In this document: positions 4,345 through 25,023 of the stretch, in pieces | How positions within the stretch are numbered: the stretch's first letter is position 1 | Layout of the letters: the number at the start of each line of letters is the position of its first letter | IMG/VR virus record: IMGVR_UViG_3300030419_005477 | Span: 1-37,657 of that record | From: a virus | DNA length: 37,657 nucleotides | Strand: one strand, 5' to 3' | Position numbers and translations under genes: made by a program | Notes under the pieces: model-generated | Database searches by the model: none | Seen by the model: the letters and a program-made list of their open reading frames with translations, nothing else | Told to the model about the DNA's origin: nothing

Positions 4345-6849
4345 ATGTATCAAAACGTATACACAACCTGGACAAAGAAAGGACCTGTAGTTCACATATG
4401 GGATGATGAACGTGGTTACATTGTTCTCAAACATGATAGATATGCATATGCAAAATCACCAACCGGTAAACACATATCAATTTATGGTGATAAATTAAAA
4501 CGCATTCGGAAATGGGATGATGATGAACAAGATCAGTTATTTGAAGCTGATATACATCCAGAGATGAGAACTCTAATAGATTTGTATGCTGACTCTGATG
4601 AACCTTCGATTGGTCATAGAGTGGTGTTTTTTGATATTGAGGTAGAGATGAAGGGTGGATTTCCAAACAAAGATAATCCTAGACAAGCTATAACATCAAT
4701 ATCTATATATGATAAAACCACAGATAAGATGTATGCATTAGTTTGGGATCCACAAACAAGATTTACGCAACTAAATGATGATACAGTTGAAGTTCAATGT
4801 TACGAGACAGAATATGAATTACTGCAAGGATTTTTGCTATTAATGCAAACATTAAATCCTACAATTTTATCCGGATGGAATACAGATCTTTTTGATATAC
4901 CATATCTATACAACAGAATGTGTGCAGTAGTGGGAGAAGAACTAGCTAAAAGTATAAGTCCTATCAATAATATATTTTATAGAGAAGCGCAAGGAATATA
5001 CAAAATAGCTGGTGTTTCTAGTTTAGATTATCTAAAGCTATATAGAAAGTTTAGTATGGGTGATAGACCCTCTTATGCATTAGATGCAATTGGTGAACTT
5101 GAAGTGGGTATGAAAAAAATTAAGTATGAGGGTACCTTACAAGACTTATATGAAAGTGATATCACAAAGTATGTTGAATACAACGTCCGAGATGTTGAAT
5201 TATTAAAACAATTAGATGAGAAGCTCGGATATATTGAGACAGCTCGAGCTTTATGTCACAAGGGTCATATCCCATATGAAAATATTTATACACAAAGTCA
5301 GATATTAGATGGTGCAATATTAACTTATCTAAAGAGACGAAACATTGTAGCACCTTCTAAGAAGATTGGTAATAGTGCTAATTATAGTGGTGCTGGAAGA
5401 CAGCATATCAGTGGAGCATTCGTAAAAGATCCACAGTCCGGATTACATGAATGGGTTTTTGATATAGACGCAACGTCAATGTATCCTAGTATTATTATGT
5501 CACTAAATATAAGTCCGGAAACAAAGAGAGCTAAAATTATAGATTGGTCAGCAGATGAACGATTTAGAGAACCAACTAAGAAATGGTCTGTTGTAGAATC
5601 AAAAGGTAAAACACAATCACTAGATGGATCTCAGATAGATCAATATTTGGAAAAAAATAACTACAGTTTATCTGCAAATGGGATTATGTACTCAAAGGAT
5701 TATACAGGTGTGCTGGGATCGATTTTAAAAGAGTGGTTTGAAGAACGTGTATCATATAAAAAGAAGAGAGATGAGTTTCTAAAAGAGGGAGATACAGTCA
5801 GAGGTGGGTTTTATGATAGAAGACAATATGTACAAAAGATTTTATTGAACAGTTTATATGGAGTTCAAGCGCTTCCTACATTTAGATTTCATGATTTGGA
5901 AAATGCTGAAGCTACAACATCAACCGGACAAGCTATAATCAAATTTGCAGAAAAAGCGGGTAACCAATTTTATAATAAAGAATTAAATGATAATAAAGAT
6001 TGGTGTGTTTATATAGACACTGATAGCTTGTTCTTTAGCGCTAAACCTCTAGTATTGAAACGTCAACCAAATATAGATACAAATGATATTGACACAATGG
6101 TCGGACAAACAATTTCTATATGTCGAGAATTTGCGCAATATGTTAATGATGGATTAGATGTATTTGCTAAGAGAGCATGTAACTTGAATGAACATGGATT
6201 CTCGTTTAAACAAGAAGTTGTAGGCCGTGCTGGTTTATTTATAACTAAAAAGCGTTATGGTATGTGGTTGGTTGATAAGGAAGGTCACAGAGTCGATAAG
6301 TTAGATGTTAAAGGTATGGATATTATTAGATCTAATTTTCCAGAAGGATTCAAAACCTTGTTAAGTGATGTGTTGATGAAAATTTTAAAACTTGAAGATA
6401 AAGATGGAGTTGATCAAACTATACTTGATTATGAGAAGAAAGTTACAATGCTTCCTTTGGAACTAATTGCAATGCAAACGGGTGTAAAAGGAATTAAAAA
6501 ATATACGACTAAAGAAGGTCAACCATCAAAAGGTTGTCCGGTTCATGTACGTGGAGCAATTAATTATAATTTTCTGTTGACTCGTATGGGTTTAAGTGGT
6601 AAGATCGAACCGATCAAATCAAATGAAAAGATCTTTTGGGTATATCTAAAACAAAATCCGTATGGGTTTAATAACATCTCATTTAAGAAGGAAGATAATC
6701 CAAAAGAGATTGAAGAGTTTATAAAAACGTATGTCGATAGTAAAAAGAATTTTAAAAAAGCAGTTAATAATAAAGTGGAAGCATTCTATGGAGCACTTAA
6801 TTGGACATTACCAGTGGATAGTGTAAATACATTAGATGCTTTCTTCTAA
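4345..6849 (+). CDS. 43: Family-B DNA polymerase with 3'-5' exonuclease (T4 gp43-like)
   Basis: Replicative phage DNA polymerase, 834 residues. Exonuclease motifs are complete: Exo I D97-x-E99 (FFDIEVE), Exo II N179-T-D181 in GWNTDLFD, Exo III Y279-x3-D283 (YNVRD). Polymerase motifs follow: motif A D375-A-T-S-M-Y-P-S (canonical SLYPS, here SMYPS), motif B K498-x3-N502-S-L-Y-G, motif C Y556-I-D558-T-D560-S, then KKRYG for primer-template grip. All catalytic residues are intact. It acts with the clamp and clamp loader encoded at 11217-13419. The ATG has only a weak ribosome site in the 37 bases after the receptor terminator, so initiation may depend on an unseen promoter or translational signal. 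Confidence 0.97.
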   Translation: MYQNVYTTWTKKGPVVHIWDDERGYIVLKHDRYAYAKSPTGKHISIYGDKLKRIRKWDDDEQDQLFEADIHPEMRTLIDLYADSDEPSIGHRVVFFDIEVEMKGGFPNKDNPRQAITSISIYDKTTDKMYALVWDPQTRFTQLNDDTVEVQCYETEYELLQGFLLLMQTLNPTILSGWNTDLFDIPYLYNRMCAVVGEELAKSISPINNIFYREAQGIYKIAGVSSLDYLKLYRKFSMGDRPSYALDAIGELEVGMKKIKYEGTLQDLYESDITKYVEYNVRDVELLKQLDEKLGYIETARALCHKGHIPYENIYTQSQILDGAILTYLKRRNIVAPSKKIGNSANYSGAGRQHISGAFVKDPQSGLHEWVFDIDATSMYPSIIMSLNISPETKRAKIIDWSADERFREPTKKWSVVESKGKTQSLDGSQIDQYLEKNNYSLSANGIMYSKDYTGVLGSILKEWFEERVSYKKKRDEFLKEGDTVRGGFYDRRQYVQKILLNSLYGVQALPTFRFHDLENAEATTSTGQAIIKFAEKAGNQFYNKELNDNKDWCVYIDTDSLFFSAKPLVLKRQPNIDTNDIDTMVGQTISICREFAQYVNDGLDVFAKRACNLNEHGFSFKQEVVGRAGLFITKKRYGMWLVDKEGHRVDKLDVKGMDIIRSNFPEGFKTLLSDVLMKILKLEDKDGVDQTILDYEKKVTMLPLELIAMQTGVKGIKKYTTKEGQPSKGCPVHVRGAINYNFLLTRMGLSGKIEPIKSNEKIFWVYLKQNPYGFNNISFKKEDNPKEIEEFIKTYVDSKKNFKKAVNNKVEAFYGALNWTLPVDSVNTLDAFF

Positions 6850-6859
6850 GGAGAGAATA

Positions 6860-7303
6860 ATGGGTAAACATAGAAGTTATAAAAGATTTATAGGATATAG
6901 TACAGCATTTCGTCAATGGAAGGCTGATTCACATTGCAATATGATTCATGGTTATGCCTTTTGTTTTAAGGTATGGTTTGAAGGTGAATTAGATGATAGA
7001 GGCTGGGTTATAGATTTTGGGTGTTTTAAACGTAATGGAGTAAAAGAGTGGATGAAACATATGTTTGATCATACCACTTGTGTAGCAGCAGATGATCCGG
7101 AACTTGAATTGTTTGAAGAAATGTATAGACGTGGTATAATAGATCTTAGAGTGTTGGAAGATGGTGTAGGATGTGAAAAGTTTGCAGAACTAATTGGTAA
7201 CTACTTACAAGAAATAGTACACAAAGAAACAGATGGTAGAGTAAAGGTGCATAAATGTCAAGTGTGGGAACATAACGATAATATGGCTGAATACTATGTC
7301 TAA
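6860..7303 (+). CDS. queD: 6-carboxy-tetrahydropterin synthase (QueD-like)
   Basis: T-fold enzyme that turns dihydroneopterin triphosphate into 6-carboxy-tetrahydropterin, step 2 of 7-deazaguanine synthesis. The start at 6860 is chosen over an in-frame ATG 24 bases upstream because AAGGAG precedes it; it gives 147 residues. Visible motifs are C26-x3-H30-G (canonical CxxxHGH), WVIDFGCFK at 49-57, FDH at 69-71 and a late VWE at 135-136, equivalent to the catalytic Glu. Two usual zinc-binding histidines differ: the first is replaced in STAF, and HGH reads HGY. I recall HGY forms in phage relatives, so this is probably a phage subfamily and not a dead gene. It overlaps queE by 8 bases. Confidence 0.87.
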   Translation: MGKHRSYKRFIGYSTAFRQWKADSHCNMIHGYAFCFKVWFEGELDDRGWVIDFGCFKRNGVKEWMKHMFDHTTCVAADDPELELFEEMYRRGIIDLRVLEDGVGCEKFAELIGNYLQEIVHKETDGRVKVHKCQVWEHNDNMAEYYV

Positions 7304-8048
7304 AGTTCTTCCAATATTAGAATTATACAGATGCGTACAATCAGAAGGTAGTAGATTTGGAACTCCAACTATTGCTGTGAGAACAACAGGGTGTACTCAT
7401 CGATGTTATTTTGGTGAAGGTGGTTGGTGTGATAGTTGGTATACTAGCATTCATCCGGAGAAAGGAAAATATACTTGGGATGATATTCATAAAATTTATG
7501 ATGATAATCCACACATCAAGGAAATGATGTTGACAGGTGGATCACCAAGTATGCATAGAGATTTAGTAAATGATCTTACACAGTTTGCCCATCAGCGTGA
7601 AATATTTGTTACAATGGAAACAGAAGGTTCACATGTAATACAAACAGACATACCAATTGACCTAATAAGTCTAAGTCCAAAATTTAGTAATTCTGTTCCA
7701 GTGATTGGAGCTGTCACACCAAAAGGTCAAGTAGTTGATCAGAAATTTGTTGACGTACATAATAGAATGAGGCTAAATTTAGATACGATAGAAGAGTTAA
7801 TATCATACCATTCCGATTATCATTTCAAACCGGTTTGGGATGGGACAGAAGAAAATATTAATGAAATAGAAATGTTTCGAGTTGAATTGAATATACCAAA
7901 AAATAAAACTTATATCATGCCAGCAGGAGACACGAGAGAAACTTTGATAGAAATGTATCCAAAAGTGTTTGAACTCTGTGCTGAGAGAGGATATAGAATG
8001 ACTGGTAGAGATCATATAATTGCATTTGACACTGAAAGGGAGGTATAA
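7296..8048 (+). CDS. queE: 7-carboxy-7-deazaguanine synthase (QueE-like radical SAM)
   Basis: Radical SAM enzyme that contracts carboxy-tetrahydropterin to 7-carboxy-7-deazaguanine (CDG). Length is 250 residues. The N-terminus ELYRCVQSEGSRFGTP is the QueE signature, followed by the Fe-S cysteines C33-x3-C37-x7-C45 (GCTHRC, then FGEGGWC), and MLTGGSP at about 88-94, a SAM-binding GG(E/S)P motif. The last cysteine spacing is seven rather than the usual two residues, a loop variation discussed under findings. It is translationally coupled to queD upstream and to the kinase downstream, whose ATG overlaps this stop codon. Confidence 0.9.
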   Translation: MSKVLPILELYRCVQSEGSRFGTPTIAVRTTGCTHRCYFGEGGWCDSWYTSIHPEKGKYTWDDIHKIYDDNPHIKEMMLTGGSPSMHRDLVNDLTQFAHQREIFVTMETEGSHVIQTDIPIDLISLSPKFSNSVPVIGAVTPKGQVVDQKFVDVHNRMRLNLDTIEELISYHSDYHFKPVWDGTEENINEIEMFRVELNIPKNKTYIMPAGDTRETLIEMYPKVFELCAERGYRMTGRDHIIAFDTEREV

Positions 8049-8635
8049 TGAATATAATAGGTGTATGCGGTAAAGGTGGTTCAGGAAAAGATACTATAGC
8101 TAATTATTTAGTAGACTATCACCATTACAATAGAGTAGCAGCTGCTGATGCTATGAAAGTTGATTTGTGTAACTATCTTAATATGGACCTTGAAACATTA
8201 GAGAAGATAAAGAATAAAGAATTGACGCTTGTTGATGAGCTGTATCATGAAGAAGGATTTATGGATTATGGCACATTTTCAGTAAGAAGATTCCTACAGT
8301 TGTATGGTATGGATATGAGATATAGAATAGCAGATACTTACTGGTTAGAAAGATCAATCAAAGAAAAGGTAAAAGAACTTGGTACCAACGGTGAAACTAA
8401 TATAGTTGTATCTGATGTAAGATTTGAAATTGAATATGATTGGATAAAGTCTAATGGTGGTGATGTTATATATGTTGATGGTAGAACAGGATTGACTAAA
8501 CATCAAAGTGAACACGTGTCTGAAAATTTTGTAAATACAACTGCAAAAGAAAAGTGTGATTACATTATTAATAACATTGGTAGTTTAGAAACATTATTTA
8601 AACAAGTTGAGGATTATTTAAATGGCAAGAATTAG
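8048..8635 (+). CDS. Phage deoxynucleoside monophosphate kinase (T4 gp1-like)
   Basis: P-loop kinase that phosphorylates dNMPs to dNDPs from degraded host DNA or from the phage reductase route. The Walker A loop is GKGGSGKD at residues 8-15; VVSDVRFEIEYDWI at about 120-133 is the conserved substrate/Walker B region of phage dNMP kinases. 195 residues, usual length about 200-240. GGGAGG lies just upstream and the ATG overlaps the queE stop (TAATG). Its place inside a deazaguanine cluster may be ordinary nucleotide metabolism, or it may serve a modified nucleotide; the sequence cannot decide. Confidence 0.85.
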   Translation: MNIIGVCGKGGSGKDTIANYLVDYHHYNRVAAADAMKVDLCNYLNMDLETLEKIKNKELTLVDELYHEEGFMDYGTFSVRRFLQLYGMDMRYRIADTYWLERSIKEKVKELGTNGETNIVVSDVRFEIEYDWIKSNGGDVIYVDGRTGLTKHQSEHVSENFVNTTAKEKCDYIINNIGSLETLFKQVEDYLNGKN

Positions 8636-8978
8636 AGTAAAGCATATAGTATTAGGCACACATAATTGGCCTGGTGCTGATGAACATTTTCCTGAAGTAG
8701 GATTTTTAAAACATGAACATCATCATGATTTTCATTTTTATGTCGAGTGTGATGTTGAGCATCATGATAGAGAAGTAGAGTTCATAATGTTGAGAATGGA
8801 CTTGATGAGAATAATTGATACATGCTTTGAAGGTAAATATATGAAAAAATTTGGTGCTATGAGTTGTGAAATGATAGCGTCGAATGTATTGAAACATTTA
8901 ATTGATAAATACGGAGAGAGGAATTGGAAAGTTTCTGTCTTCGAAGACGACATACAAGGAGGTATAATTGAAGATTGA
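8622..8978 (+). CDS. Histidine-rich conserved phage protein of unknown function
   Basis: 118 residues, not assigned to a named family. It contains a striking His/acid stretch: HNWPGADEHFPEVGFL, then KHEHHHDFHF, then EHHDREVEF, with SCEMIA near residue 84. The pattern H-x-W, a FL-x(3-4)-HxH block, and HxDREVEF resembles uncharacterised phage proteins I have seen near queD-type genes. The histidines could bind a metal. It overlaps the kinase by 14 bases and the next gene by 11, so it is co-translated with the deazaguanine genes. Function unknown; a T-fold or metal-enzyme role is speculation. Confidence 0.75.
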   Translation: MARIRVKHIVLGTHNWPGADEHFPEVGFLKHEHHHDFHFYVECDVEHHDREVEFIMLRMDLMRIIDTCFEGKYMKKFGAMSCEMIASNVLKHLIDKYGERNWKVSVFEDDIQGGIIED

Positions 8979-9789
8979 TATTTGCTTTATTACAAGCACC
9001 CCACATTTAGAATCCCATGCTGCTTTGTCCAATAGACATATGGCATTAGCTCATCTTGTCTTGCAAGATAACAAGTATGCAAGATTTTATAAGAATACAA
9101 CAAAATATACGATAATGGATAATTCAGCTTTTGAGTTTGAAGAACAGGGTAGAGGAGTACCACGAGATATGGTATACAAAGCTGCAAAGAAAATAGAAGC
9201 TGATGAGATATGTGCTATTGATATATTGTTTGACGGTCCAGGTACTGTCGATAGTGTAAGAGACTTCACAAGTTATATTCTTCACAAAGATGTGTGGATG
9301 TTTGATAGTACCAAATTCATGGCTATACCACAAGGAAGAACAGCTGACGAATGGTTAGATTGCTACGAAGCTCTAGTTCAAATGAAAGAAATAGACGTTA
9401 TTGGTTTATCTAAATTATCTGTACCTGAATCGTTTGTTGGTAATCATCATGAAGAAGGTAATTGCACACGTGGTAGAATTAAGTGTATAGACTTTTTAGT
9501 TGATCACAAAATGACGCCTGATAAGTTTGGTAAGGAGACTCATTTACTCGGATCAGATAATGCTGGTATAAATGAGCTATCATACTATTATGATAACGAC
9601 TATAGCTTCATCAGATCTAATGACACATCTATGCCATTTGTTTATGGATATAGTGGTGAAAAGATAACAGATGGTTTTGTTGATAATATTGTGATGGAAA
9701 AATTAGATTTTAACAAACAATTATCTCATATTGAAATACAAACAGTTGATGATAATTTTATAGCTTGGAGAACACTACATGTCGATTGA
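8968..9789 (+). CDS. TGT/DpdA-like protein, candidate deazaguanine transglycosylase
   Basis: 273 residues starting at TTG, a choice supported by AAGGAGG seven bases upstream and by the absence of any ATG in the first 20 residues. The sequence reads as a TIM-barrel of the tRNA-guanine transglycosylase superfamily: IMDNSAFE at 49-56 (the DSGAF-type active-site loop), AIDILFDG at 83-90, IPQGRTADEWLDCYE at 120-134 (compare VQGG), IDVIGLSKLS at 142-151 (compare GYAIGGLSVG), HLLGSDNAGINEL at 192-204 and RSNDTS at 216-221. DpdA proteins of this superfamily insert deazaguanines into DNA. Sitting between queE and folE2, this fits a DNA-modifying role. The zinc-cysteine set of true TGTs is not evident. 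Confidence 0.6.
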   Translation: MKIDICFITSTPHLESHAALSNRHMALAHLVLQDNKYARFYKNTTKYTIMDNSAFEFEEQGRGVPRDMVYKAAKKIEADEICAIDILFDGPGTVDSVRDFTSYILHKDVWMFDSTKFMAIPQGRTADEWLDCYEALVQMKEIDVIGLSKLSVPESFVGNHHEEGNCTRGRIKCIDFLVDHKMTPDKFGKETHLLGSDNAGINELSYYYDNDYSFIRSNDTSMPFVYGYSGEKITDGFVDNIVMEKLDFNKQLSHIEIQTVDDNFIAWRTLHVD

Positions 9790-10693
9790 TTATTCAGAAA
9801 AGATGCCAGATCTCATATTCAAATATGACGATGAACACGTACCAAATGAACTACCTGATCCACAAATTGATCCAATTATACCAGGAGCCAGGGTACCGTT
9901 AAAGAAGGTTGGAATAGCACCAGTAGATCTTCCTGTTCGTTTAATGAGACGTGACGGAACAAGCCAAACGCTTCAGGCAGAAGCATCGTTATACTGTTCT
10001 TTAGATGATGTTAATGCAAAGGGGTTAAACCTATCTCGCTTATACTTATTAATGCATGATAAGATAAAAGATAAGCTGTCATTAGATGGAATCAAAGAAG
10101 CTCTTGCAGAGTTAGCTGATAGACAGGGATCAGACAATGCTTTTTGCAAATTGAGATTTAAGTACCCATGGACTCAGGATTCTTTGAGATCTGATTTACA
10201 AGGTCATATAGCTTATAAGACGGTACTTGATGGATCATATTCAAAAGATAGTGGATATAAATTTTATCTGACAGTTGAATATGTTTACTCATCAACATGT
10301 CCATGTAGTTTTGAATTAGCTTATGATGCAAGAACTAAACGAGATGCAGCCGCAAATGCACATAGTCAGAGGTCAATTGCAACTGTAACCGTTCAGTTTG
10401 ATCCGGATAAGATTGTGTGGATAGAAGATTTAGTAGAACTGTGTAGAAAGCATGTTCCAACGGAAGTGCAGATAGTAGTAAAGAGAAAAGATGAACAGGC
10501 TTTTGCAGAGTTAAATGGTTCAAATCTTTTGTTTAGTGAAGATGTAGCAAGAATATTACATCAAGCATTAGATGAATGGTATGAAGAAGAAAAGATTTTC
10601 GACTTTAGTGTCTCGATATCACATGAAGAAAGTTTGCATCCATGGAATGCTATCGCTGTGACAACAAAAGGCATTGAAGGTGGCTTAACCTAA
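9779..10693 (+). CDS. folE2: GTP cyclohydrolase IB (FolE2-type)
   Basis: Converts GTP to dihydroneopterin triphosphate, the entry step of 7-deazaguanine (and folate) synthesis. 304 residues. Family signatures: VGIAPVDLPVRL at 44-55, KGLNLSRLYLLM at 81-92, STCPCS with C174 and C176 at the metal site, HSQRS at 195-199, and EESLHPWNAIAV at 283-294 (compare the ESIHNHDA motif). This is the FolE2/MptA fold and not the common phage FolE type IA. The start overlaps the preceding stop region by 11 bases. Together with QueD and QueE it completes GTP to CDG. Confidence 0.88.
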   Translation: MSIDYSEKMPDLIFKYDDEHVPNELPDPQIDPIIPGARVPLKKVGIAPVDLPVRLMRRDGTSQTLQAEASLYCSLDDVNAKGLNLSRLYLLMHDKIKDKLSLDGIKEALAELADRQGSDNAFCKLRFKYPWTQDSLRSDLQGHIAYKTVLDGSYSKDSGYKFYLTVEYVYSSTCPCSFELAYDARTKRDAAANAHSQRSIATVTVQFDPDKIVWIEDLVELCRKHVPTEVQIVVKRKDEQAFAELNGSNLLFSEDVARILHQALDEWYEEEKIFDFSVSISHEESLHPWNAIAVTTKGIEGGLT

Positions 10694-10708: not shown

Positions 10709-11203
10709 ATGTTTATTAATCCGAAGAAAGGTATAGAAGAAGGTTGGATAAAAAATGTCGATGAAAAGAACATCCAACCAAATGCTATAGATATAACTGC
10801 AGATCAGATATGGAAAGTGGCACAGCAAGAGGCAGATATTACAAGTAAAAGACATAGAAACAGAAACTCGGTAACTGTAAATGAAAAAGGTTTTTGGAAT
10901 TTATTTAATGGTGTATATGACTTTGCTTCTGAAACTTATATCGAAGTACCGGAAGGTTTAGTAGGCTGGTTGCATACACGATCCACATTGAATAGAAATG
11001 GTCTAATTGTACATTCTGGTTTATATGATAGTGGATTCAAAGGACCAATTTGTGGAATGATATACAATCTCGTTGCAGGAAATGTTTTTATGACACCAGG
11101 AACATGTGTGGCACAATTTATAATAGCTACGTCCGATTCAGCTGGAACGTATTCTGGAGGCTATAATGTAGAAGAAGGAAGTACCTGGTTTAATAGTAAA
11201 TAA
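10709..11203 (+). CDS. dCTP deaminase / dUTPase-superfamily protein
   Basis: 164 residues. A trimeric-dUTPase-fold protein that would act on dCTP or dUTP and feed dTTP synthesis. Motifs: QPNAIDITAD near residue 28 (compare QP.S.DL), HTRSTLNRNGLIVHSGLYDSGFKGPI at about 91-116, which is read in pieces as RST-x2-NGL then YDSGFKG, and a late EGSTWF. The RS-x-LNR motif is nearer to dCTP deaminase, but the catalytic Glu expected after the GF-x-G loop is not obvious, so deaminase and dUTPase cannot be separated by eye. GGGAG precedes the ATG. Confidence 0.75.
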   Translation: MFINPKKGIEEGWIKNVDEKNIQPNAIDITADQIWKVAQQEADITSKRHRNRNSVTVNEKGFWNLFNGVYDFASETYIEVPEGLVGWLHTRSTLNRNGLIVHSGLYDSGFKGPICGMIYNLVAGNVFMTPGTCVAQFIIATSDSAGTYSGGYNVEEGSTWFNSK

Positions 11204-15276: not shown

Positions 15277-16665
15277 ATGTCTAAGAAAAAGATACTGTTG
15301 CTATCAGATGATTTAAGAATGCATTCCGGAGTTGCCGTAATGTCTCATGAAATAGTAAAAAACACACTACACCACTATGATTGGGTTCAGATTGCTGGAG
15401 CGATACAACATCCTGAAAAAGGTAAGATTTCTGACATGTCAGAGGTAGCAAAGAAGGATTGGGGAATAAAAAATCCATATTTAAAATTATATCCTGTGGA
15501 TGGTTACGGTGATCCAATGACCCTCCGTGAAGTAATTAAAATGGAAAAGCCTGATGCAATATTGCACTATACAGATCCACGTTTTTGGATATGGCTATAT
15601 CAAATGGAAGGTGAGTTGAGAAAAATTATGCCCATATTCTTTTATACTATTTGGGATGATTTACCATATCCAATGTATAATAGAAATTATTATAAGAGTT
15701 GTGATTTGATGATGGCAATATCAAAACAATCATATAATATCGTAAAGAAAGTTGTTCCGGAACTTGAAGATTGGCAGCTATCATATGTACCACATGGTAT
15801 CGATACAAAAAAATTCTTTCCAGTCAGTACAGTTAATACAGAATTTCTGCAATTCAAACAAAAATTTGGATTTGATAAATATGAATTTCTAGTTTTATAT
15901 TTAAATCGAAATATAAGACGTAAACAACCAGGTGATGTTGCTTTAGCATTTAAACATTTCGTCGATCAGCTACCAGAAGACAAGAAAGATAAAGTAGCAT
16001 TAATCTGGCACACTGCACCTGTAGATGAAAATGGTACAGATTTACCAAGAATGTGTAAGCATATAATACCAGATTGTAAAGTAATCTTTACATATCCAAT
16101 TAACAATGGTCCTTTTGATGATAAATCTATGAATTTCTTATACAATGCATCTGACATGTATATAAATCTCGCAAGTAATGAAGGATTTGGTTTGGGTTCA
16201 TGTCAGGCATTAGCAGTTGGTAAACCTATACTAATTAATGTTACTGGTGGATTGCAAGATCAATGTGGATTTAAGTTGAACGATAAATTCCTGGATGAAA
16301 AAGATTACTTAGAGATTGAATCATTACATAATAATAAAATGTGGAAGGACAATCCGGAACTTACTCATAGTAGCTGGGCATTTCCGGTTTGGCCTACAAA
16401 CAGATCTTTACAAGGATCACCACCTACTCCATACATTTTTGATGACAGGTGTCAGTATGATGATGCTGGAGATCAAATATTAAATATCTATAACCTAACT
16501 GAAGAAGAAAAGCAAACGATATCTACAGATGCTATGGACTGGATCAAGAAGAAAGAGACAGGTATGACAGCTGAGTTGATGGGACAGAGGTTTATTGATA
16601 GTATGGACAGAGCATTTGATAACTGGAAACCGGTTGATAATTTTAGATTGGAGGAAGTAGCATGA
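15277..16665 (+). CDS. GT4-like glycosyltransferase
   Basis: 462 residues, GT-B fold. N-terminal KKILLLSDDLRMHSGVAVMSHEIV is a Rossmann start with the glycine loop; YVPHGIDTKKFFP near residue 172 is the usual domain linker of GT4 enzymes; SNEGFGLGSCQALAVGKPILINV near 305 is the EGFG nucleotide-sugar phosphate-binding motif. It transfers a sugar from an NDP donor to an unknown acceptor. AGAGG precedes the ATG. First enzyme of the 17-kb sugar module and overlapped by a second GT4-like gene. Confidence 0.87.
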   Translation: MSKKKILLLSDDLRMHSGVAVMSHEIVKNTLHHYDWVQIAGAIQHPEKGKISDMSEVAKKDWGIKNPYLKLYPVDGYGDPMTLREVIKMEKPDAILHYTDPRFWIWLYQMEGELRKIMPIFFYTIWDDLPYPMYNRNYYKSCDLMMAISKQSYNIVKKVVPELEDWQLSYVPHGIDTKKFFPVSTVNTEFLQFKQKFGFDKYEFLVLYLNRNIRRKQPGDVALAFKHFVDQLPEDKKDKVALIWHTAPVDENGTDLPRMCKHIIPDCKVIFTYPINNGPFDDKSMNFLYNASDMYINLASNEGFGLGSCQALAVGKPILINVTGGLQDQCGFKLNDKFLDEKDYLEIESLHNNKMWKDNPELTHSSWAFPVWPTNRSLQGSPPTPYIFDDRCQYDDAGDQILNIYNLTEEEKQTISTDAMDWIKKKETGMTAELMGQRFIDSMDRAFDNWKPVDNFRLEEVA

Positions 16666-17948
16666 ATAAAGTTGTAATGTGTGGACCGTTTAGTTCGAGA
16701 TCTGGTTATGGAGATCATGCAAGATCAATTTTTGCATCATTAGTAACAATTGAAGATTTTGATATATTGATATTAGATGTTCGTTGGGGTGATACACCAC
16801 AAGATGCTTTAGAAAATGATGGCAAAATAGAAACGCAAATAAAAAAACGATTGACTAATCCATCAGAATTAAGTTTTCAACCTGATATCTATATAGATAT
16901 TCGAATACCAAATGAATTTATAACACCTGGAAAAATCAATGTTGGTATAACAGCTGGTATTGAAACAAATATAGTTTCCCCGGCATTTCTTCAAGGTGCA
17001 AATCAAATGGACTTATTAATAGTTCCATCAGAACATGCCAAGACGGGGTTTATGGAAACTACATATGAAATGGAACAAAATGGACAACCTACCCAACAAT
17101 CATTACAATGTACAGTACCAATTGAAGTTGTGCATGAAGGTTTAGATCCAAACATTTTTAGAAAACTTAGTAAAAAAGAAATTGATAAAAAATTTGCAAA
17201 TAAAATTAGTAATATTGTAAAACGACCAAGTGCATTATTTGTAGGTCAGTGGACTCAAGGTGGGTTTGGAAATGATAGAAAGGATATAGCACGACTAGTT
17301 AAATTGTATATTGAAACATTTGGAAATAAACCAAACCCACCCGGTTTATTAATGAAGACGAACGGAGCAACATATTCACAATTAGATTATCATGAAGTAA
17401 AAAAGAAAATAGCAGCAATAAAAGAGCAGTTTCCACCAGGCATAAAAGTACCACCAATTTATTTATTACATGCTAATTTAACTGAGGAAGAAATGAATCA
17501 GTTATACAACCATGATAAGATATTTGGATTGATAACATTGACACATGGAGAAGGATTTGGCCGACCAATGTTGGAAGCCACGTTTGCTGAACTTCCAGTG
17601 TGTGCTACTAAATGGTCCGGACAATTAGATTTTCTTCCGGAAGACAAATGTTGTTTAATTGAAGGTGAGATGACACAAGTACCCGATGATGTAGTGTGGG
17701 AAAATATCATCGTAAAAGAGTCATCATGGTTTACAGCTTCCGAGATGTCAGCTTATGAAAGATTTAGAAGTTTTTATAATGAGAATCACACTAAGTGGAA
17801 ACGTTTAGGAAAAGAGGTTTCAGAACAGAATAGAAAAGATTTTAGTTTGGATGCAATGACTGATAAACTTGTTAATATTTTTAGCGATTTAAAAAATAAA
17901 ATTCCTAAACCTATGCAGATCAAATTACCTAAACTGGAGACGATATAA
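16662..17948 (+). CDS. GT4-like glycosyltransferase
   Basis: 428 residues. Starts NKVVMCGPFSSRSGYGDHAR, which is the GT4 N-terminal glycine motif, followed by DPNIFRKL at the linker and THGEGFGRPMLEATFAELPVCAT near residue 292, the EGFGRPxLE donor site with E-x7-E geometry. Related in layout to the preceding gene, perhaps an old duplication. Probably adds a second sugar in the same glycan. ATGA overlap with the upstream stop. Confidence 0.87.
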   Translation: MNKVVMCGPFSSRSGYGDHARSIFASLVTIEDFDILILDVRWGDTPQDALENDGKIETQIKKRLTNPSELSFQPDIYIDIRIPNEFITPGKINVGITAGIETNIVSPAFLQGANQMDLLIVPSEHAKTGFMETTYEMEQNGQPTQQSLQCTVPIEVVHEGLDPNIFRKLSKKEIDKKFANKISNIVKRPSALFVGQWTQGGFGNDRKDIARLVKLYIETFGNKPNPPGLLMKTNGATYSQLDYHEVKKKIAAIKEQFPPGIKVPPIYLLHANLTEEEMNQLYNHDKIFGLITLTHGEGFGRPMLEATFAELPVCATKWSGQLDFLPEDKCCLIEGEMTQVPDDVVWENIIVKESSWFTASEMSAYERFRSFYNENHTKWKRLGKEVSEQNRKDFSLDAMTDKLVNIFSDLKNKIPKPMQIKLPKLETI

Positions 17949-18310
17949 TGGATGTTAAATTAGATTGTCCGCTATGTGGTACACATAACTTAAAAGTACA
18001 GGGTACTGCTATGCAATGTCAGCATTGTGGAATGGCAACAGATGAAGTATATAAGGACTTGGATGAACAATCTGAACCGTATGATGTATTGCAAGAGGAT
18101 ATGAAAACGTTTGTAAGATTTATAGACAATCAAATGTGGATACCATCACAAGTGCAATTTGAATTTGGTGCAATAACACCATACAATGATAATGGAGTGT
18201 TGATGTACGAAGCGGTTTTCGGTGAAGATAAAATTGAAAGTAAGTTGTTTTCTGAAGCACTTGGATTTGTAATAGAAAAGTTTCATGGCCAGGCTACGTC
18301 GCAGATATAG
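17948..18310 (+). CDS. Zinc-ribbon-headed hypothetical protein
   Basis: 120 residues. An N-terminal zinc ribbon, CPLCGTHNLKVQGTAMQCQHC at about 8-28 (two CxxC pairs), is followed by an acidic linker and a mixed alpha/beta region with FVRFIDNQMWIPSQVQ. No family recognised. Starts by TAATG overlap after GGAGACG. Its last 26 bases overlap the next gene in a different frame. Confidence 0.75.
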   Translation: MDVKLDCPLCGTHNLKVQGTAMQCQHCGMATDEVYKDLDEQSEPYDVLQEDMKTFVRFIDNQMWIPSQVQFEFGAITPYNDNGVLMYEAVFGEDKIESKLFSEALGFVIEKFHGQATSQI

Positions 18311-18764
18311 ACACGCGTTCCTAGGAGATGTTATAGACATAGCAGATGCTAGGGTGTTACCAGGAATGGTAGTAACCTTCTATTATAATGCTGTTGGTGT
18401 TTATGATAGAAATCCATCATGCTTCGTCATGCATAAAGATAAAGATTTTTTATATGGTTTCAATTTAAATTATTTACCAATTAATCAATGTAAGGATATT
18501 TTTCGTCGACTAAATGTTATGTTAGATTTTGTAACTGAAAATAGAGTACAAGCACCTAGACCGTATAATAGAATTGAAATGGCAACTAGATTTACACCAT
18601 CTGCATTTGATGGAAAAATGTTGTATAAAAACCTAAGTGTCAATCCAAAGGCAAAGGAAGCTTATAGAACATATAAGCAATTGAAGCTGTCAGCATTGAA
18701 AGTATTAAATATAGATTATACTAGTCTTGGTTTCACATTAGTTAATAAGGTAAAGGAAGATTAA
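18285..18764 (+). CDS. Conserved phage protein of unknown function
   Basis: 159 residues, basic N-terminus (MARLRRRYRH). The block GMVVTFYYNAVGVYDRNPSCFVMHKDKD then YGFNLNYLP resembles an uncharacterised family common in T4-like marine phages that carries a (F/Y)xYnA ... P ... G-NLHYLP pattern. No catalytic motif is visible. Sits among glycosyltransferases but may belong to virion or replication functions, as both flanking genes overlap it. Confidence 0.7.
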   Translation: MARLRRRYRHAFLGDVIDIADARVLPGMVVTFYYNAVGVYDRNPSCFVMHKDKDFLYGFNLNYLPINQCKDIFRRLNVMLDFVTENRVQAPRPYNRIEMATRFTPSAFDGKMLYKNLSVNPKAKEAYRTYKQLKLSALKVLNIDYTSLGFTLVNKVKED

Positions 18765-19390
18765 TGAAAATATCATATTCATTACTAACTCATAATGAAA
18801 CGGACAACTTAGAAAAGCTGTTACAGTTTTTAGTTGAACATAAAGATAAAGAGGATGAGATTGTTATATTAGATGATTACTCTACTAACGAAAAAACTAA
18901 AACTATATTAGATGGTTATGTGTCAATACATAACATGAAATTTGAACAGAGATATCTAAAAGGAGACTTTGCTGGACAAAAGAACGCACTCAGATTAATG
19001 TGCTCAGGGGATTGGATTTTTAATATAGATGCTGATGAACTACCACATAAGTTGATGTTTAAAAATCTAAAAACAATATTGGAACATAATAAAGATATTG
19101 AAATGTTTTATGTACCAAGAATCAATACAGTCAGTGGACTTACTCAGCGACATGTTATGAGATGGGGCTGGCAGGTTAATGATAAAGGTTACATCAATTG
19201 GCCTGATTGGCAGTCTAGGCTATGGCAGAATAAATCGCATATTTACTGGGACAGATCTGTGCACGAGACATTAACAGGATTCAAAAATTATTCCTTTCTA
19301 CCACAGGAAGAACGATTTGCTATCCAACATCCAAAAACTATTGAACAGCAAGAAAAACAAAATGAATTTTATTCCAAGATCCCAAGATAA
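18764..19390 (+). CDS. GT2-like glycosyltransferase
   Basis: 208 residues, GT-A fold. SYSLLTHNETDNLEKLL is the family-2 start, EIVILDDYSTNEKT supplies the uridine-binding Asp region, and WIFNIDADELPH near residue 86 contains the DxD metal motif. A WPDWQSRLW block follows, typical of small bacterial GT2 (WaaE-like) enzymes. The C-terminus overlaps the next gene. Confidence 0.85.
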   Translation: MKISYSLLTHNETDNLEKLLQFLVEHKDKEDEIVILDDYSTNEKTKTILDGYVSIHNMKFEQRYLKGDFAGQKNALRLMCSGDWIFNIDADELPHKLMFKNLKTILEHNKDIEMFYVPRINTVSGLTQRHVMRWGWQVNDKGYINWPDWQSRLWQNKSHIYWDRSVHETLTGFKNYSFLPQEERFAIQHPKTIEQQEKQNEFYSKIPR

Positions 19391-19976
19391 AGTACTTGTA
19401 ATTGGTAACGGACCAACTGTAGTTGACAAACTCAATCTAGATTTGATATCAAAATACGATATCATCGTCAGGATAAATAGGGGTTTTTTTGAGGGTGTTG
19501 AGCGATATAAAGATGTAATTGGAACTAGAACTGATTTGCTTTATATACATGATGGATTTTGCACCGGTGAATGGTTTGGTAAGAGATCAGTTGATGATGT
19601 TAAACAAGTGTTTGTGGTTATACCAAACTTCAAATACGGTATGATGAGACAACTGAAACACTCGTATCCAGATTTTGAAATTGTACCAAGAACAATAGAA
19701 GAAACTGTAACTGGGGAATATAATTTTGAAGGTAGGTGGCCTACTACAGGGTTAGAATGTTTATTACATTTGAAGGAAATGTATAGCGATGTAACGATTG
19801 TGGGGTTTGATAATAATACAAGTGAAGGTAAGAAATATACAAATTATCATTTCTATAAACATACTGATAAGAGAACAATGGAAGACATGCAGAAAAGTAG
19901 ACCAGATCATAAATTTAAATTGGAACGAGTAATTATAGATTCAATGATAAATGCAGGGGCATTAAAGGTTATATGA
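19362..19976 (+). CDS. GT29 sialyltransferase-like protein
   Basis: 204 residues from ATG 19362; an in-frame TTG at 19317 would lengthen it but lies deep inside the upstream gene. KVLVIGNGPTVVDKLNLDLI followed by YDIIVRINRG matches sialyl motif L of family 29 glycosyltransferases, and GRWPTTGLECLLHL followed by VTIVGFDN matches motif S (PTTG). These enzymes use CMP-sialic-acid-type donors, so this protein fits the two CMP-sugar synthetases encoded at 20878 and 30141. Membership is by motif; true donor unknown. Confidence 0.75.
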   Translation: MNFIPRSQDKVLVIGNGPTVVDKLNLDLISKYDIIVRINRGFFEGVERYKDVIGTRTDLLYIHDGFCTGEWFGKRSVDDVKQVFVVIPNFKYGMMRQLKHSYPDFEIVPRTIEETVTGEYNFEGRWPTTGLECLLHLKEMYSDVTIVGFDNNTSEGKKYTNYHFYKHTDKRTMEDMQKSRPDHKFKLERVIIDSMINAGALKVI

Positions 19977-20878
19977 AAACTATACAAATAGTGATACATG
20001 TGTTTGCACACGAGATGCATGATTTTCAAAGAGTAGTTGAGCAGCTAAAACGTAATTTAGAATTTACAGAAGCAAAGTCTTATGCCTTTGATATTACGTT
20101 AAATGTCAGCGAAGATAAATATAATTGGAAAGATTCAATATTACAACCGTCCTTTTTTATTCAACAGTTTGAAGATCTGTGTGCAATGCTTCCCAGCACA
20201 ACAACACAAGTTATTTACAGTGGTGACTATGGATGTAACAGTGTTAGGAGAAAAGCGGCTCGGACTAGTTCACATGACTATATTGGATACCTAGATTTGG
20301 ATTTGCATTTTAGTATGTACACATTACATTATATAGATAACGCAATACAAACACTTGGTGATAATCAAATAATAGTCAGCGGACAGATTCCAAGGTTGTG
20401 GGATGATAGTTGGAACGTAATTAGTAATGATGAATTTATCGATATGGGTGTGGAAAGTAAAATATGGTTAAGAATTGATCCGTATAGTATAGATAAACTC
20501 GTGTACAAAAGATTAAAAGATATTCAGTTGAAAGCATTGCCGTATGTTAAGATTGGTGGTGGGTGGATGAATTTTATTAATCAAGAATTATTAAATGAAA
20601 TAGATATTCCTGATTCATTAGGTGCATATGGAATGGATGATACTTATGTTGAAAACGCTTGTAACCTACTTGTACAACAGCATAACAGACAAATACAACA
20701 ATACGTTGTTGATAATTTGTTAGTATGTGAAAATAGAAAATATGAAAAGTTTGAACCATATTTGAATAATGGTTATCTTACAATGAATGGAGACTTAGAG
20801 TTTTACAAAAAAGATATGGCTTCAAAAGCACAAGATAACTGTCAAATTGAATTACAAAAGTTGATGGAAAAATATTAA
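19973..20878 (+). CDS. GT-A-like glycosyltransferase, putative
   Basis: 301 residues. TIQIVIHVFAHEMHDFQRVVEQL opens like a GT-A fold and HDYIGYLDLDLHFSM near residue 100 holds a DLDLH metal-binding-like motif. GAYGMDDTYVE near 221 is the usual downstream acid motif. Most probably a sugar transferase, although the fold call rests on few residues. ATGA coupled at both ends. Confidence 0.65.
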   Translation: MKTIQIVIHVFAHEMHDFQRVVEQLKRNLEFTEAKSYAFDITLNVSEDKYNWKDSILQPSFFIQQFEDLCAMLPSTTTQVIYSGDYGCNSVRRKAARTSSHDYIGYLDLDLHFSMYTLHYIDNAIQTLGDNQIIVSGQIPRLWDDSWNVISNDEFIDMGVESKIWLRIDPYSIDKLVYKRLKDIQLKALPYVKIGGGWMNFINQELLNEIDIPDSLGAYGMDDTYVENACNLLVQQHNRQIQQYVVDNLLVCENRKYEKFEPYLNNGYLTMNGDLEFYKKDMASKAQDNCQIELQKLMEKY

Positions 20879-22554
20879 TGTTGTTGGACTGTACATTTAG
20901 AGACGGTGGTTATTATACCAATTGGACTTTTGATAAAGATATGGTTCGTGAAACTGTACGAGCTCTGGATAACACTGATCGATTTGAATATATAGAACTT
21001 GGTTACAAAAGTCCATCTAAAGGTGGACCATATAAAAAATGTAATGAAAAATATATTAAAGCTGTTTTACAAAACAAACCAAACACTAAACTTGCTTTCA
21101 TGATAGACCTCAAGGAATTTTATAATGTAGTATTGGGAGGTCTCGATAAACAACTTGTTAATGATATCATACCACATAGTAAAGATAGCTGGTTTTCATT
21201 AGCACGAGTTGCACTTACAAAAGCCAATTTAAGTATACTACCTGATATGGTAAAAATTCTAAAACAGAAAAAATATACTGTTGGTGTTAATCTAATGCAA
21301 GTTGATTTATTAGATGAGCAAGAATTTATTAGAGCTGTTGAGGAGTTACGATTAATAAAAAATAGCATTGACTATTTTTATGTAGCTGATTCGTTTGGTA
21401 CAATCAAACCACAAAAGCTAGAATACTACAAGAGTCACTACAGCACACTTGGAAAGATTGGTTTCCATGCGCACGACAACATGGGTCTAGCATTTGCAAA
21501 TGTACTTGAAGCTGAAAGATTAGAATATGATTTAATTGATACAACAATGACTGGTATGGGTCGAGGTGTTGGCAACGCTAGGACAGAACAATATTTAATG
21601 TTAGATAAAGGTTTTCATCAAGAAGTATTTGATGTGGTTGATAAATGGTTTGTTCCTTTACAACGTAAATGTAAATGGGGTTGGAATAGACATTATATGC
21701 AAACAGCTCGCTACAAAACACATCCTAGTTATGCTCAAAGACTTCTCAATTCACATTTATCAGATGGACAGATCACTGATGTGCTTAGTGGTTTATATGA
21801 AGCAGCTTATAAAGAACGTGATATAGCTGATTTAGTGACACCAAGGACGTGCATAGTTATACCAGCACGTTACCAAAGTAGCAGGTTCCCGGGAAAACCA
21901 CTACAACCAATATTTGGTGAACCAATGATAAGTTACGTCGCAAGCACAGCCATAGAAGTTGTAGGACGTGAGCATGTATACATAGCAACAGAAAATAATG
22001 AAATACGACTGGTATGTAAAGAATTAGGTTACAATGTTATAATGACTAGTGACCAATGTCTTACAGGAACAGATAGAGTTGCTGAAGCTGCTATGGAACT
22101 TGATTATGATCATTTTGTCAATATACAAGGTGATGAACCAATGTTGAAAGAGCAAGATATTAGGAAAGCAATATATGCTAAAAACAAATATCATGATAAA
22201 GTTGTGAATTGCTACACATCTGTTTATGAGAATGAAGCTGCCAATCCAAATACGATAAAGATGGTAATGAAAAAGAACAGTGATCTAATGTATGCTTCCA
22301 GATCAACAATACCTGGTACTAAAACTGGTATAGGTGATAGATTACATAAACAAGTTTGTATATACGTTTTTAATAAACGTGAACTTGAAATGTTTAGTAG
22401 TAGAGATAAAACACCGGTTGAGTGGTATGAAGACATTGAGATATTAAGATTTCTTGAAATGAATTATCCTGTACATATGGTAAGGGTTAGCGCAAGCAGT
22501 CATGCAGTTGATACACCTGAAGATATAAAGATTGTAGAGGAGTTAATGTTATGA
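20878..22554 (+). CDS. Fusion of DRE-TIM aldolase and KdsB-like CMP-sugar synthetase
   Basis: 558 residues, two enzymes in one chain. Residues 1 to about 318 are a DRE-TIM metallolyase/HMGL-like aldolase: LLDCTFRDGGYYTNW with R8-D9, FHAHDNMGLAFAN with metal ligands H197 and H199, and MTGMGRGVGNARTE. From about 324 a complete CMP-ulosonate synthetase follows: VIPARYQSSRFPGKPL, TGTDRVAEAAM and NIQGDEPML, diagnostic of KdsB (CMP-Kdo synthetase). The aldolase would act on a keto acid and the second half activates an ulosonic acid with CTP. Start by TAATG overlap. No frameshift is needed: both domains are in one uninterrupted frame. Confidence 0.9.
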   Translation: MLLDCTFRDGGYYTNWTFDKDMVRETVRALDNTDRFEYIELGYKSPSKGGPYKKCNEKYIKAVLQNKPNTKLAFMIDLKEFYNVVLGGLDKQLVNDIIPHSKDSWFSLARVALTKANLSILPDMVKILKQKKYTVGVNLMQVDLLDEQEFIRAVEELRLIKNSIDYFYVADSFGTIKPQKLEYYKSHYSTLGKIGFHAHDNMGLAFANVLEAERLEYDLIDTTMTGMGRGVGNARTEQYLMLDKGFHQEVFDVVDKWFVPLQRKCKWGWNRHYMQTARYKTHPSYAQRLLNSHLSDGQITDVLSGLYEAAYKERDIADLVTPRTCIVIPARYQSSRFPGKPLQPIFGEPMISYVASTAIEVVGREHVYIATENNEIRLVCKELGYNVIMTSDQCLTGTDRVAEAAMELDYDHFVNIQGDEPMLKEQDIRKAIYAKNKYHDKVVNCYTSVYENEAANPNTIKMVMKKNSDLMYASRSTIPGTKTGIGDRLHKQVCIYVFNKRELEMFSSRDKTPVEWYEDIEILRFLEMNYPVHMVRVSASSHAVDTPEDIKIVEELML

Positions 22555-23336
22555 TTGATAAAACACCTTTCGTTGCAGAACAGATCAGAAAGCTACCTGA
22601 AATAAAAGATAGAGTTGATTATCTATGGGGCAAATATTATGATGAAGATTGTTTCATTCTAGCGGCTGGTCCATCATTGAAAAAATATTCTGTAGAATAT
22701 ATCAAAGAAAAATTAAAAGATAAGGTAGTAATTTGTATCAAACAAAGCATCAAAGATTTTTATGACGTAGCAGATTTTCATTGTTTGAATTTTACTAACT
22801 ATGAACCATATGATGGTTATAAAAATAATATTGTAGTGTGGGAAGTATTTGAACATTATCATCCAAATATGATTCTTGATAATAAAATACCATGTGATAT
22901 TATGTTACCTATTGAAGGTAATCATGGAACAGATACAGTTGATAAAATGAATGGCACACAAGCTAAGCTTGAAAATTTTAGTGACTGGGAACTTAATAAG
23001 ACATTAACAAGATGGTATGGTCCTGGCATCTTTTATGAAACTGTTATTCATTTATGCGTGCACCTAGGAGTTAAAAGCATTACCACGTTAGGTTGGGACA
23101 TTGGAGACCTTAGTAAGTTTGGTGACGATCCATATGAAGATGTTTGGCAGGATCATTCCTACGAAGGAAAAGAAAATATAGTATATGCACCAACACCAAT
23201 GAATAAATATGAGATTGAAGTAGTAAGAGATAGCACACCAGCACTTTATAAATATTTATCGTCTCGGGGAATTGATTTTAAAATTATATCTGATACTAAT
23301 CCTGCATCTGATATCATACCAAGAGTGGAATTGTGA
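22551..23336 (+). CDS. DUF115/MptE-like Rossmann protein, candidate ulosonic-acid transferase
   Basis: 261 residues. DEDCFILAAGPSLKKYSVEYI at about 31-51 is the AAGPSL nucleotide-binding loop of the DUF115 group, and VKSITTLGWDIGD near 182 is the usual second motif. That group includes Maf-type proteins that attach nonulosonic acids to bacterial flagellin. Directly follows the CMP-sugar synthetase fusion (ATGA overlap), which supports a transferase using a CMP-activated acid sugar. Family call moderate, activity inferred. Confidence 0.6.
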   Translation: MIDKTPFVAEQIRKLPEIKDRVDYLWGKYYDEDCFILAAGPSLKKYSVEYIKEKLKDKVVICIKQSIKDFYDVADFHCLNFTNYEPYDGYKNNIVVWEVFEHYHPNMILDNKIPCDIMLPIEGNHGTDTVDKMNGTQAKLENFSDWELNKTLTRWYGPGIFYETVIHLCVHLGVKSITTLGWDIGDLSKFGDDPYEDVWQDHSYEGKENIVYAPTPMNKYEIEVVRDSTPALYKYLSSRGIDFKIISDTNPASDIIPRVEL

Positions 23337-24124
23337 ATATCAATAAAGAGTTAAAATTATTATTTATTCACGTCCCTAAATGTGCTGGTAAGAGTATAGA
23401 AAAAGCATTTAATATACCAGCAGATCCGGATTTAAAAAGGAGTATCGTAGAAGGTCGAATGACTGAATTGACATTTAATAGATATGGATGGGACCTTAAT
23501 GATTACATAAAGTTTTGTGTTGTACGAAATCCGTGGGATAGATTGGTAAGTTTATATCACTTTCGGAAAAGAGAAAAAGATTTATACAATTTGTTTCCTG
23601 GAAATTATGTTTTTGGTGGGGACGAAACTCTACGTGATGGTACGACATTAAATTTCAAAGAATGGATTATGAACCCACATTCAAAAGGAGCGTCCTTTCC
23701 ACATTTAGAAATGGTTATGCATCCTAAAACACCATTAAAAGAACAGGAACTATTCGGTCCAAAATATCAACGGAAAGATCATTTCTACAGAATGACAAAA
23801 GAGCAAAATAATGATCTGTATCTATTCGAAAATAAATATTTGTGGTTGACTCATTTCCTAGATTGGATACAGCAAATTCATTTCATCACAAAAGAAGATG
23901 GAAGCCTTATAGTAGATGATGTGTTGCGCTTTGAAACATTGGAATCCGATTTAGATACATTTTGTGATAAGCATGACCTACCTAAAGTACAGCTACCACA
24001 TATAAATAAAAACCCAAGAAAAAAGAAAAATTATGTTGACTATTATGATGATGAGTTGTTAAGTTACATAGAAGATTATATGCAAGATGACATAGAACAT
24101 CTTGGATACAAGTTTGGAGATTGA
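23333..24124 (+). CDS. Sulfotransferase (Sulfotransfer_2-like)
   Basis: 263 residues starting at GTG; the preceding stop overlaps the codon. HVPKCAGKSIEKAF at 13-26 is the 5'-phosphosulfate loop and CVVRNPWDRLVSLYHF at 62-77 the 3'-phosphate motif of PAPS-dependent carbohydrate sulfotransferases. It would move a sulfate from PAPS to a sugar hydroxyl, so the module's glycan may be sulfated. No PAPS synthesis gene is in the window; the host would supply it. Confidence 0.87.
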   Translation: MNINKELKLLFIHVPKCAGKSIEKAFNIPADPDLKRSIVEGRMTELTFNRYGWDLNDYIKFCVVRNPWDRLVSLYHFRKREKDLYNLFPGNYVFGGDETLRDGTTLNFKEWIMNPHSKGASFPHLEMVMHPKTPLKEQELFGPKYQRKDHFYRMTKEQNNDLYLFENKYLWLTHFLDWIQQIHFITKEDGSLIVDDVLRFETLESDLDTFCDKHDLPKVQLPHINKNPRKKKNYVDYYDDELLSYIEDYMQDDIEHLGYKFGD

Positions 24125-24125
24125 A

Positions 24126-25019: not shown

Positions 25020-25023
25020 TATT

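What the first reader, a model, noticed from the sequence alone, without database searches (positions are those of the whole stretch)
6860..10693. A phage 7-deazaguanine gene set with FolE2, QueD, QueE and a DpdA-like protein but no QueC in view
Known: FolE, QueD and QueE turn GTP into CDG; QueC makes preQ0; DpdA-type proteins place deazaguanines in DNA, protecting it from restriction. Seen: all except QueC. Inference: if QueC is missing from the whole genome, the modified base could be the carboxy form (dCDG) or a derivative. FolE2 in place of FolE is also unusual in phages.
Basis: partly seen in the sequence, partly recalled or inferred. Interest (0 to 1): 0.76.

Follow-up and report, generated by a model that had tools for sequence, protein, structure and literature searches.

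The report
QueC-less deazaguanine DNA-modification gene set
This uncultivated T4-like virus carries a compact set of genes that very probably replaces some guanines in its DNA with a 7-deazaguanine base; instead of the usual enzyme QueC it has a small unnamed relative of QueD, a swap that recurs in many environmental viruses and points to an end product other than the standard preQ0 base.

Summary
Six overlapping genes at 6836-10693 encode QueD, QueE, a dNMP kinase, an unnamed 118-aa protein, a TGT-fold (DpdA-like) protein and FolE2. No QueC is in the record, a 37.7-kb fragment, so absence here proves little; relatives settle it better. It sits beside other deazaguanine genes in 65 of 71 independently found viral loci, never with QueC; 12 complete phage genomes that have it lack a canonical QueC, while 9 QueE-bearing phage genomes without it all have one. 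Best reading: FolE2-QueD-QueE make CDG, the 118-aa protein takes CDG in QueC's place (best guess: decarboxylation to 7-deazaguanine), and DpdA puts the product into DNA. dCDG remains a live rival. FolE2 is absent from credible isolated-phage records but common in uncultivated viruses (374 loci), nearly always in this cassette, never with FolE. dCDG, dDG and a decarboxylase DpdL are, from memory, already published (Cui 2023, not held), so this is a new variant of a known kind.

The parts
6836..7303 (+). QueD (6-carboxytetrahydropterin synthase), phage type: catalytic Cys34, Asp78-His79 and Glu145 kept; zinc-ligand positions altered (Phe for the first His, HGY for HGH)
   Evidence: Pfam PTPS 4e-17, PHROG 2389 3e-34; alignment A3 invariants; profile nearest solved structure is Acinetobacter QueD2 7v0f, 2.5e-11
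7296..8048 (+). QueE (CDG synthase, radical SAM), CX3C...C cluster motif with a 5-residue insert (GCTHRCYFGEGGWCDSW)
   Evidence: PHROG 2076 7e-47; NCBIfam QueE models (below cut-offs); aligns to QueE 5tgs; 61-62% identical to phiST and immuto QueE
8048..8635 (+). Deoxynucleoside monophosphate kinase (T4 gene 1 type); link to the pathway unproven
   Evidence: Pfam DNMK 5e-21, PHROG 139 9e-43
8622..8978 (+). 118-aa T-fold protein: QueD-superfamily paralogue that replaces QueC in these cassettes; candidate CDG-processing enzyme
   Evidence: AlphaFold pLDDT 94.7; E. coli QueD top hit, VIA Z 12.8, rmsd 2.2 over 108; invariant H14, H33, H35, D49, R50, E53, S81-C82-E83, E108, D109; QueC exclusion
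8968..9789 (+). Small DpdA-like (TGT-fold) base-exchange enzyme, TTG start; invariant D51, D85, D219
   Evidence: PHROG 20335 'unknown function' 6e-20
9779..10693 (+). FolE2 (GTP cyclohydrolase I type IB) replacing FolE
   Evidence: NCBIfam NF010200 over cut-off, Pfam PF02649 1e-61; 2r5r, 8g6c and 3d2o in the PDB; CPCS, HSQRS, KRxDE and ESLH motifs invariant in nine viral FolE2
10709..11203 (+). dCTP deaminase/dUTPase-like gene next to the cassette (boundary; also flanks it in most relatives)
   Evidence: Pfam DCD 1e-15; synteny

Best explanation
A QueC-less 7-deazaguanine DNA-modification cassette. FolE2 turns GTP into dihydroneopterin triphosphate, QueD makes CPH4 and QueE makes CDG (inferred from family membership with conserved catalytic residues). 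The 118-aa T-fold protein then acts on CDG at the step where QueC normally acts; the most likely chemistry is zinc-assisted decarboxylation to plain 7-deazaguanine (inferred; about 40% for this particular reaction). The small DpdA exchanges guanine in phage DNA for the finished base (inferred from fold and conserved Asp residues). The modified DNA probably resists host restriction enzymes, as shown for other 7-deazaguanine phages (PMC6884629). Shown here: the genes, their operon-like overlap, the folds as predictions, the conserved residues, and the mutual exclusion of the T-fold protein with QueC and of FolE2 with FolE. Not shown: any enzyme activity, or the base in the DNA.
For: Operon-like overlaps of 1-14 bases through all six genes. 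Family calls for QueD, QueE, FolE2. TGT fold for DpdA with D51, D85, D219 invariant; hhalign to the large phage TGT group puts D51 on the DSGG Asp and D219 on the SYDST Asp. T-fold protein: QueD fold; its HMM also recognises the window's own QueD (7.7e-6) and hhalign matches its E83 and E108 to QueD E114 and E145. Exclusion: 12 complete phage genomes with it have no canonical QueC, 9 QueE-bearing phage genomes without it all have QueC (Fisher 3e-6); 23 large uncultivated contigs with it have none. Context: 65 of 71 loci found with this protein alone hold other deazaguanine genes, QueC in none. 18 of 21 long FolE2 contigs carry it and none carries FolE; the only one with QueC lacks it. Same set in Cellulophaga phage phiST, with FolE for FolE2.
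Against: No activity or mass-spectrometry data. The window is a fragment. In 45 of 45 loci where the T-fold protein goes with a large TGT there is also a GT-B glycosyltransferase, which fits poorly with plain 7-deazaguanine as its product unless the sugar goes elsewhere. Mutual exclusion could partly reflect shared ancestry among the phages compared. D479, counted as lacking QueC, has a PF06508 match over the cut-off (33 bits), set aside because it lacks SGGxDS and lies beside a nicotinamide phosphoribosyltransferase gene. Small DpdA has no Pfam or NCBIfam family and about 10% identity to TGT.
Confidence: 0.6

Rival explanations
1. CDG itself is inserted, giving dCDG; the T-fold protein binds or delivers CDG, or has another role.
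For: CDG is the last product that known enzymes of the cassette can make; no QueC. dCDG in phage DNA is, from memory, reported by Cui et al. 2023 (paper not held).
Against: The T-fold protein is nearly always present when QueC is absent and keeps a full enzyme-like metal triad and anchor Glu; a pathway ending at CDG would not need it.
Confidence: 0.2
2. Host QueC finishes the pathway: phage enzymes raise CDG, host QueC makes preQ0, DpdA inserts preQ0.
For: Most bacteria have QueC (12 of 14 control genomes); 9g DpdA used host preQ0 in E. coli (PMC6884629).
Against: Does not explain the T-fold protein or its strict exclusion with QueC in 12 versus 9 complete genomes.
Confidence: 0.1
3. Base exchange happens on the nucleotide pool: the small DpdA swaps guanine in dGMP or dGTP and the neighbouring kinase phosphorylates the modified dNMP for the polymerase.
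For: A kinase gene lies inside the operon; a small P-loop kinase is within 1.5 kb of small DpdA in 19 of 57 loci versus 4 of 489 control positions, in unrelated phages (phiST, Youna2, MA9V-3, immuto, D479); MazG or PRA-PH pyrophosphatase genes in phiST and immuto.
Against: T4-like phages carry dNMP kinases anyway; 38 of 57 loci lack the neighbour; DNA-level exchange is established for other DpdA proteins (PMC6884629).
Confidence: 0.06
4. The cassette serves host tRNA queuosine or folate metabolism (an ordinary auxiliary metabolic gene set).
For: Viral folE2 has been assigned to folate metabolism in a viromics study (PMC13288924).
Against: FolE2 loci carry the T-fold protein and DpdA (63 and 59 of 73 unique loci); QueC, needed for queuosine, is the gene that is missing.
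Confidence: 0.04

Closest known systems
Cellulophaga phage phiST 7-deazaguanine gene cluster
   Same: QueD, QueE, T-fold protein (34% identical), P-loop kinase and DpdA-like protein (25%), no QueC in the complete genome
   Different: FolE instead of FolE2; MazG-like gene present; T4-like replication genes not seen nearby
Phage DpdA DNA-modification systems (9g, CAjan, Rosebush, nt-1; Hutinet 2019, PMC6884629)
   Same: Base-synthesis genes plus a TGT-fold transglycosylase
   Different: Those make preQ0 or G+ with QueC or Gat-QueC; the DpdA here is a small, divergent group seen by no Pfam or NCBIfam model
DpdL, the CDG decarboxylase giving dDG (Cui et al. 2023, from memory; paper not held)
   Same: Would act on CDG in QueC-less phages, the role proposed here for the T-fold protein
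   Different: Sequence not available here; identity of the two is untested
QueD / PTPS T-fold family (E. coli QueD 4ntm)
   Same: T-fold, His...HxH triad, anchoring Glu
   Different: T-fold protein lacks the catalytic Cys and Asp-His dyad; it occurs beside a separate QueD
FolE2 (GTP cyclohydrolase IB, COG1469)
   Same: Passes the NCBIfam equivalog cut-off; active-site motifs conserved
   Different: Here part of a viral DNA-modification cassette rather than of bacterial folate or queuosine metabolism

Membership tests
Phage 7-deazaguanine DNA-modification (Dpd) systems | Genes for CDG synthesis (FolE or FolE2, QueD, QueE) clustered with a transglycosylase | tested here: met
Phage 7-deazaguanine DNA-modification (Dpd) systems | DpdA with TGT fold and conserved catalytic Asp residues | tested here: met
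   (predicted structure)
Phage 7-deazaguanine DNA-modification (Dpd) systems | 7-deazaguanine present in virion DNA | not testable with these tools
   needs LC-MS
preQ0/G+ type (QueC or Gat-QueC containing) phages | QueC or Gat-QueC encoded | tested here: not met
   none in the record or in relatives with the T-fold protein; the record itself is a fragment
QueD (for the 118-aa protein) | T-fold with His and HxH metal triad | tested here: met
QueD (for the 118-aa protein) | Catalytic Cys and Asp-His dyad | tested here: not met
   Leu at the Cys position, no DH motif in 25 sequences
DpdL CDG decarboxylase | Sequence homology to published DpdL and conversion of CDG to 7-deazaguanine | not testable with these tools
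   paper not held
FolE2 | Equivalog-level sequence match with active-site motifs | tested here: met
   NF010200 242 bits over 215
DpdA2 (Vibrio phage nt-1 type) | Sequence similarity to nt-1 DpdA2 | not tested
   nt-1 did not appear among the 14 isolate hits of the small DpdA, which does not exclude kinship

The most novel reading that the evidence does not exclude
The 118-aa T-fold family (PHROG 17812, 'unknown function', at least 556 loci in IMG/VR) is an undescribed CDG-processing enzyme that defines a QueC-independent branch of viral DNA modification. It comes in two forms: with small DpdA and FolE or FolE2 (this window), and with a large TGT plus a GT-B glycosyltransferase (45 of 45 loci), the latter implying a glycosylated 7-deazaguanine in jumbo phages such as PA5oct.
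Probability: 0.3. Interest if true: 0.78.

Novelty: new variant of a known kind. Interest (0 to 1): 0.55.

Why it matters
It turns a missing gene into a rule that can be tested: wherever viruses carry this small T-fold protein they lack QueC, so their DNA should carry a base other than preQ0 or its derivatives. Isolated phages with the protein exist (Cellulophaga phage phiST, Pseudomonas phage PA5oct, Acidovorax phage ACP17), so one mass-spectrometry run can decide. It also suggests that viral folE2 genes, filed under folate metabolism in viromics, mostly belong to DNA modification.

Tried and rejected
(1) A zinc-free pathway (FolE2 plus a QueD with altered zinc ligands): the same QueD variant occurs in FolE phages (phiST, immuto), so it does not track FolE2. 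(2) FolE2 being a misread QueF: it passes the FolE2 equivalog cut-off with FolE2 motifs conserved. (3) The two isolate FolE2 hits: 'Staphylococcus phage SA 1306/1298 Kay', unannotated; the one opened is an UNVERIFIED assembly; both about 23% identical; treated as probable bacterial contamination. (4) QueC in D479: lacks SGGxDS and lies beside a nicotinamide phosphoribosyltransferase; in X1: a below-cut-off hit that looks like an NAD-synthetase-type protein. (5) Sequence search of the PDB with the T-fold and DpdA profiles found nothing reliable; only fold comparison did. (6) Cui 2023 (PMC10516641) and the 2024 review (PMC10966956) are not held, so DpdL could not be compared. (7) Nearest isolate by DNA polymerase, Microcystis phage Mel-JY01 (40%): no deazaguanine genes annotated near its polymerase and no QueC; uninformative.
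Full report
Observation. The window is one whole IMG/VR record, a 37,657-base fragment of a T4-like virus, with family-B DNA polymerase, sliding clamp region and clamp loader around the finding. Genes at 6836-10693 overlap by 1 to 14 bases without a break: QueD, QueE, a deoxynucleoside monophosphate kinase, a 118-aa protein of unknown function, a DpdA-like protein and FolE2. Family matches are strong for QueD, QueE and FolE2. QueC (PF06508) is absent from the record.

The DpdA-like protein. No Pfam or NCBIfam model sees it and its PHROG is unnamed. A model built on 26 viral relatives is confident (pLDDT 91, pTM 0.90), and its best PDB matches are tRNA-guanine transglycosylases (Foldseek 1e-7; VIA Z 19.1, rmsd 3.0 A over 237 residues). 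Three Asp residues are invariant (D51, D85, D219); profile comparison with the large phage TGT group puts D51 at the DSGG Asp and D219 at the SYDST Asp, positions that in TGT (general knowledge) bind the base and form the covalent link. At 273 aa it is short.

The 118-aa protein. It is 34% identical to a protein of Cellulophaga phage phiST encoded between QueE and DpdA. The model is very confident (pLDDT 94.7) and is a T-fold of the QueD/PTPS family: E. coli QueD is the best match (Foldseek 2.5e-5; VIA Z 12.8, rmsd 2.2 over 108 residues). H14, H33 and H35 are invariant, in the pattern of the QueD zinc ligands. E108 matches the QueD Glu that, by general knowledge, anchors the 2-amino-4-oxo-pyrimidine ring shared by pterins and 7-deazaguanines. 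QueD's catalytic Cys and Asp-His dyad are missing. Since the cassette has a separate QueD with its catalytic residues in place, the second T-fold protein most likely binds a related molecule and does other chemistry.

It takes the place of QueC. In isolates, 12 complete genomes with the protein (phiST, D479, Ahp1, RHph_I1_18, MA9V-3, Bakedbeans, BUCT-ZZ01, X1, Phosso, ACP17, PA5oct, Roos) have no canonical QueC, while 9 QueE-bearing genomes without it (CP220, HVTV-1, phi38:2, Godines, Dp-1, MaInes, NCTB, immuto, Youna2) all have one (Fisher 3e-6, which ignores shared ancestry). D479 has a weak PF06508 match without the ATP motif and is counted as lacking QueC; NCTB's QueC match is also weak (36 bits). 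In 71 unique loci found with it alone, 65 hold other deazaguanine genes and none holds QueC; 23 contigs of 28-182 kb with it hold no QueC.

FolE2. In 50,697 phage records the only FolE2 hits are two unannotated S. aureus-linked records, probably contamination. In IMG/VR a FolE2 profile confirms 374 loci. Of 73 unique loci, 68 hold other deazaguanine genes, 63 the T-fold protein, none FolE or QueC. In 21 contigs of 26-350 kb with FolE2, none has FolE and 18 have the T-fold protein; the one QueC (among 20 tested) is in a contig that lacks the T-fold protein. FolE2 is therefore a regular stand-in for FolE in this viral pathway. A recent viromics paper filed viral folE2 under folate metabolism (PMC13288924).

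Two architectures. The T-fold protein occurs either with a small DpdA (96 unique loci, no GT-B glycosyltransferase) or with a large TGT-like protein (45 loci, each with a GT-B glycosyltransferase), and FolE2 only with the first (in the independently found subset 35 of 35 versus 0 of 23). The glycosyltransferase profile was seeded from five loci of the jumbo-phage type, so its completeness there is partly expected, but its absence from the small-DpdA loci is not. Neither this nor the kinase beside small DpdA (19 of 57 loci against 4 of 489 control positions) is explained.

Mechanism. FolE2, QueD and QueE make CDG (well supported by homology). The T-fold protein probably acts on CDG in place of QueC; loss of the carboxyl group to give 7-deazaguanine is the simplest chemistry, needs no extra cofactor, and agrees with my memory that dCDG, dDG and a decarboxylase called DpdL were described in 2023. 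That paper is not held, so whether this protein is DpdL is open. DpdA then exchanges the base in DNA. Activity and product are untested.

Verdict. QueC-less phages that might use CDG were already foreseen in 2019 (PMC6884629).

Noticed in passing
window 15277-32337: A large phage-borne glycan cluster: two phrog_2170 glycosyltransferases, several GT2 glycosyltransferases, a GT29 sialyltransferase-like protein, two cytidylyltransferases (one fused to an HMGL-like domain), MptE-like, sulfotransferase, GDP-mannose 4,6-dehydratase, DegT aminotransferase, 2-hydroxyacid dehydrogenase and a DAHP-synthase/NeuB-like protein. Target of the sugar unknown.
   Followed up: partly
L057 6182-7333 (Vibrio phage Bakedbeans gp176) and L051 6653-7534 (MA9V-3): The T-fold protein appears as the C-terminal part of longer ORFs with unrelated N-terminal parts; possible fusions or misannotation.
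   Followed up: no
L008 207-1126 and L011 4191-5101: Relatives of the window carry two tandem QueD genes, one 80-81% and one 36-37% identical to the window's, and a different FolE2 (46%) at the same place: cassette parts are being swapped.
   Followed up: no
window 6836-7303 and phage QueD family: The phage QueD group replaces the HGH zinc motif with HGY and usually the first zinc His with Phe, while keeping the catalytic residues; nearest solved structure is the QueD paralogue QueD2 of Acinetobacter.
   Followed up: partly
L153-L162: T-fold protein, mostly with deazaguanine genes, also in contigs binned as archaeal and bacterial MAGs (Nitrosarchaeum, Pacearchaeota, Heimdallarchaeota, Rickettsiales and others); probably viral contigs mis-binned or proviruses.
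   Followed up: no
window 34076-34567 and 33501-34088: Pyrimidine dimer DNA glycosylase (T4 DenV type) and a peptide deformylase with a SEC-C tail.
   Followed up: no
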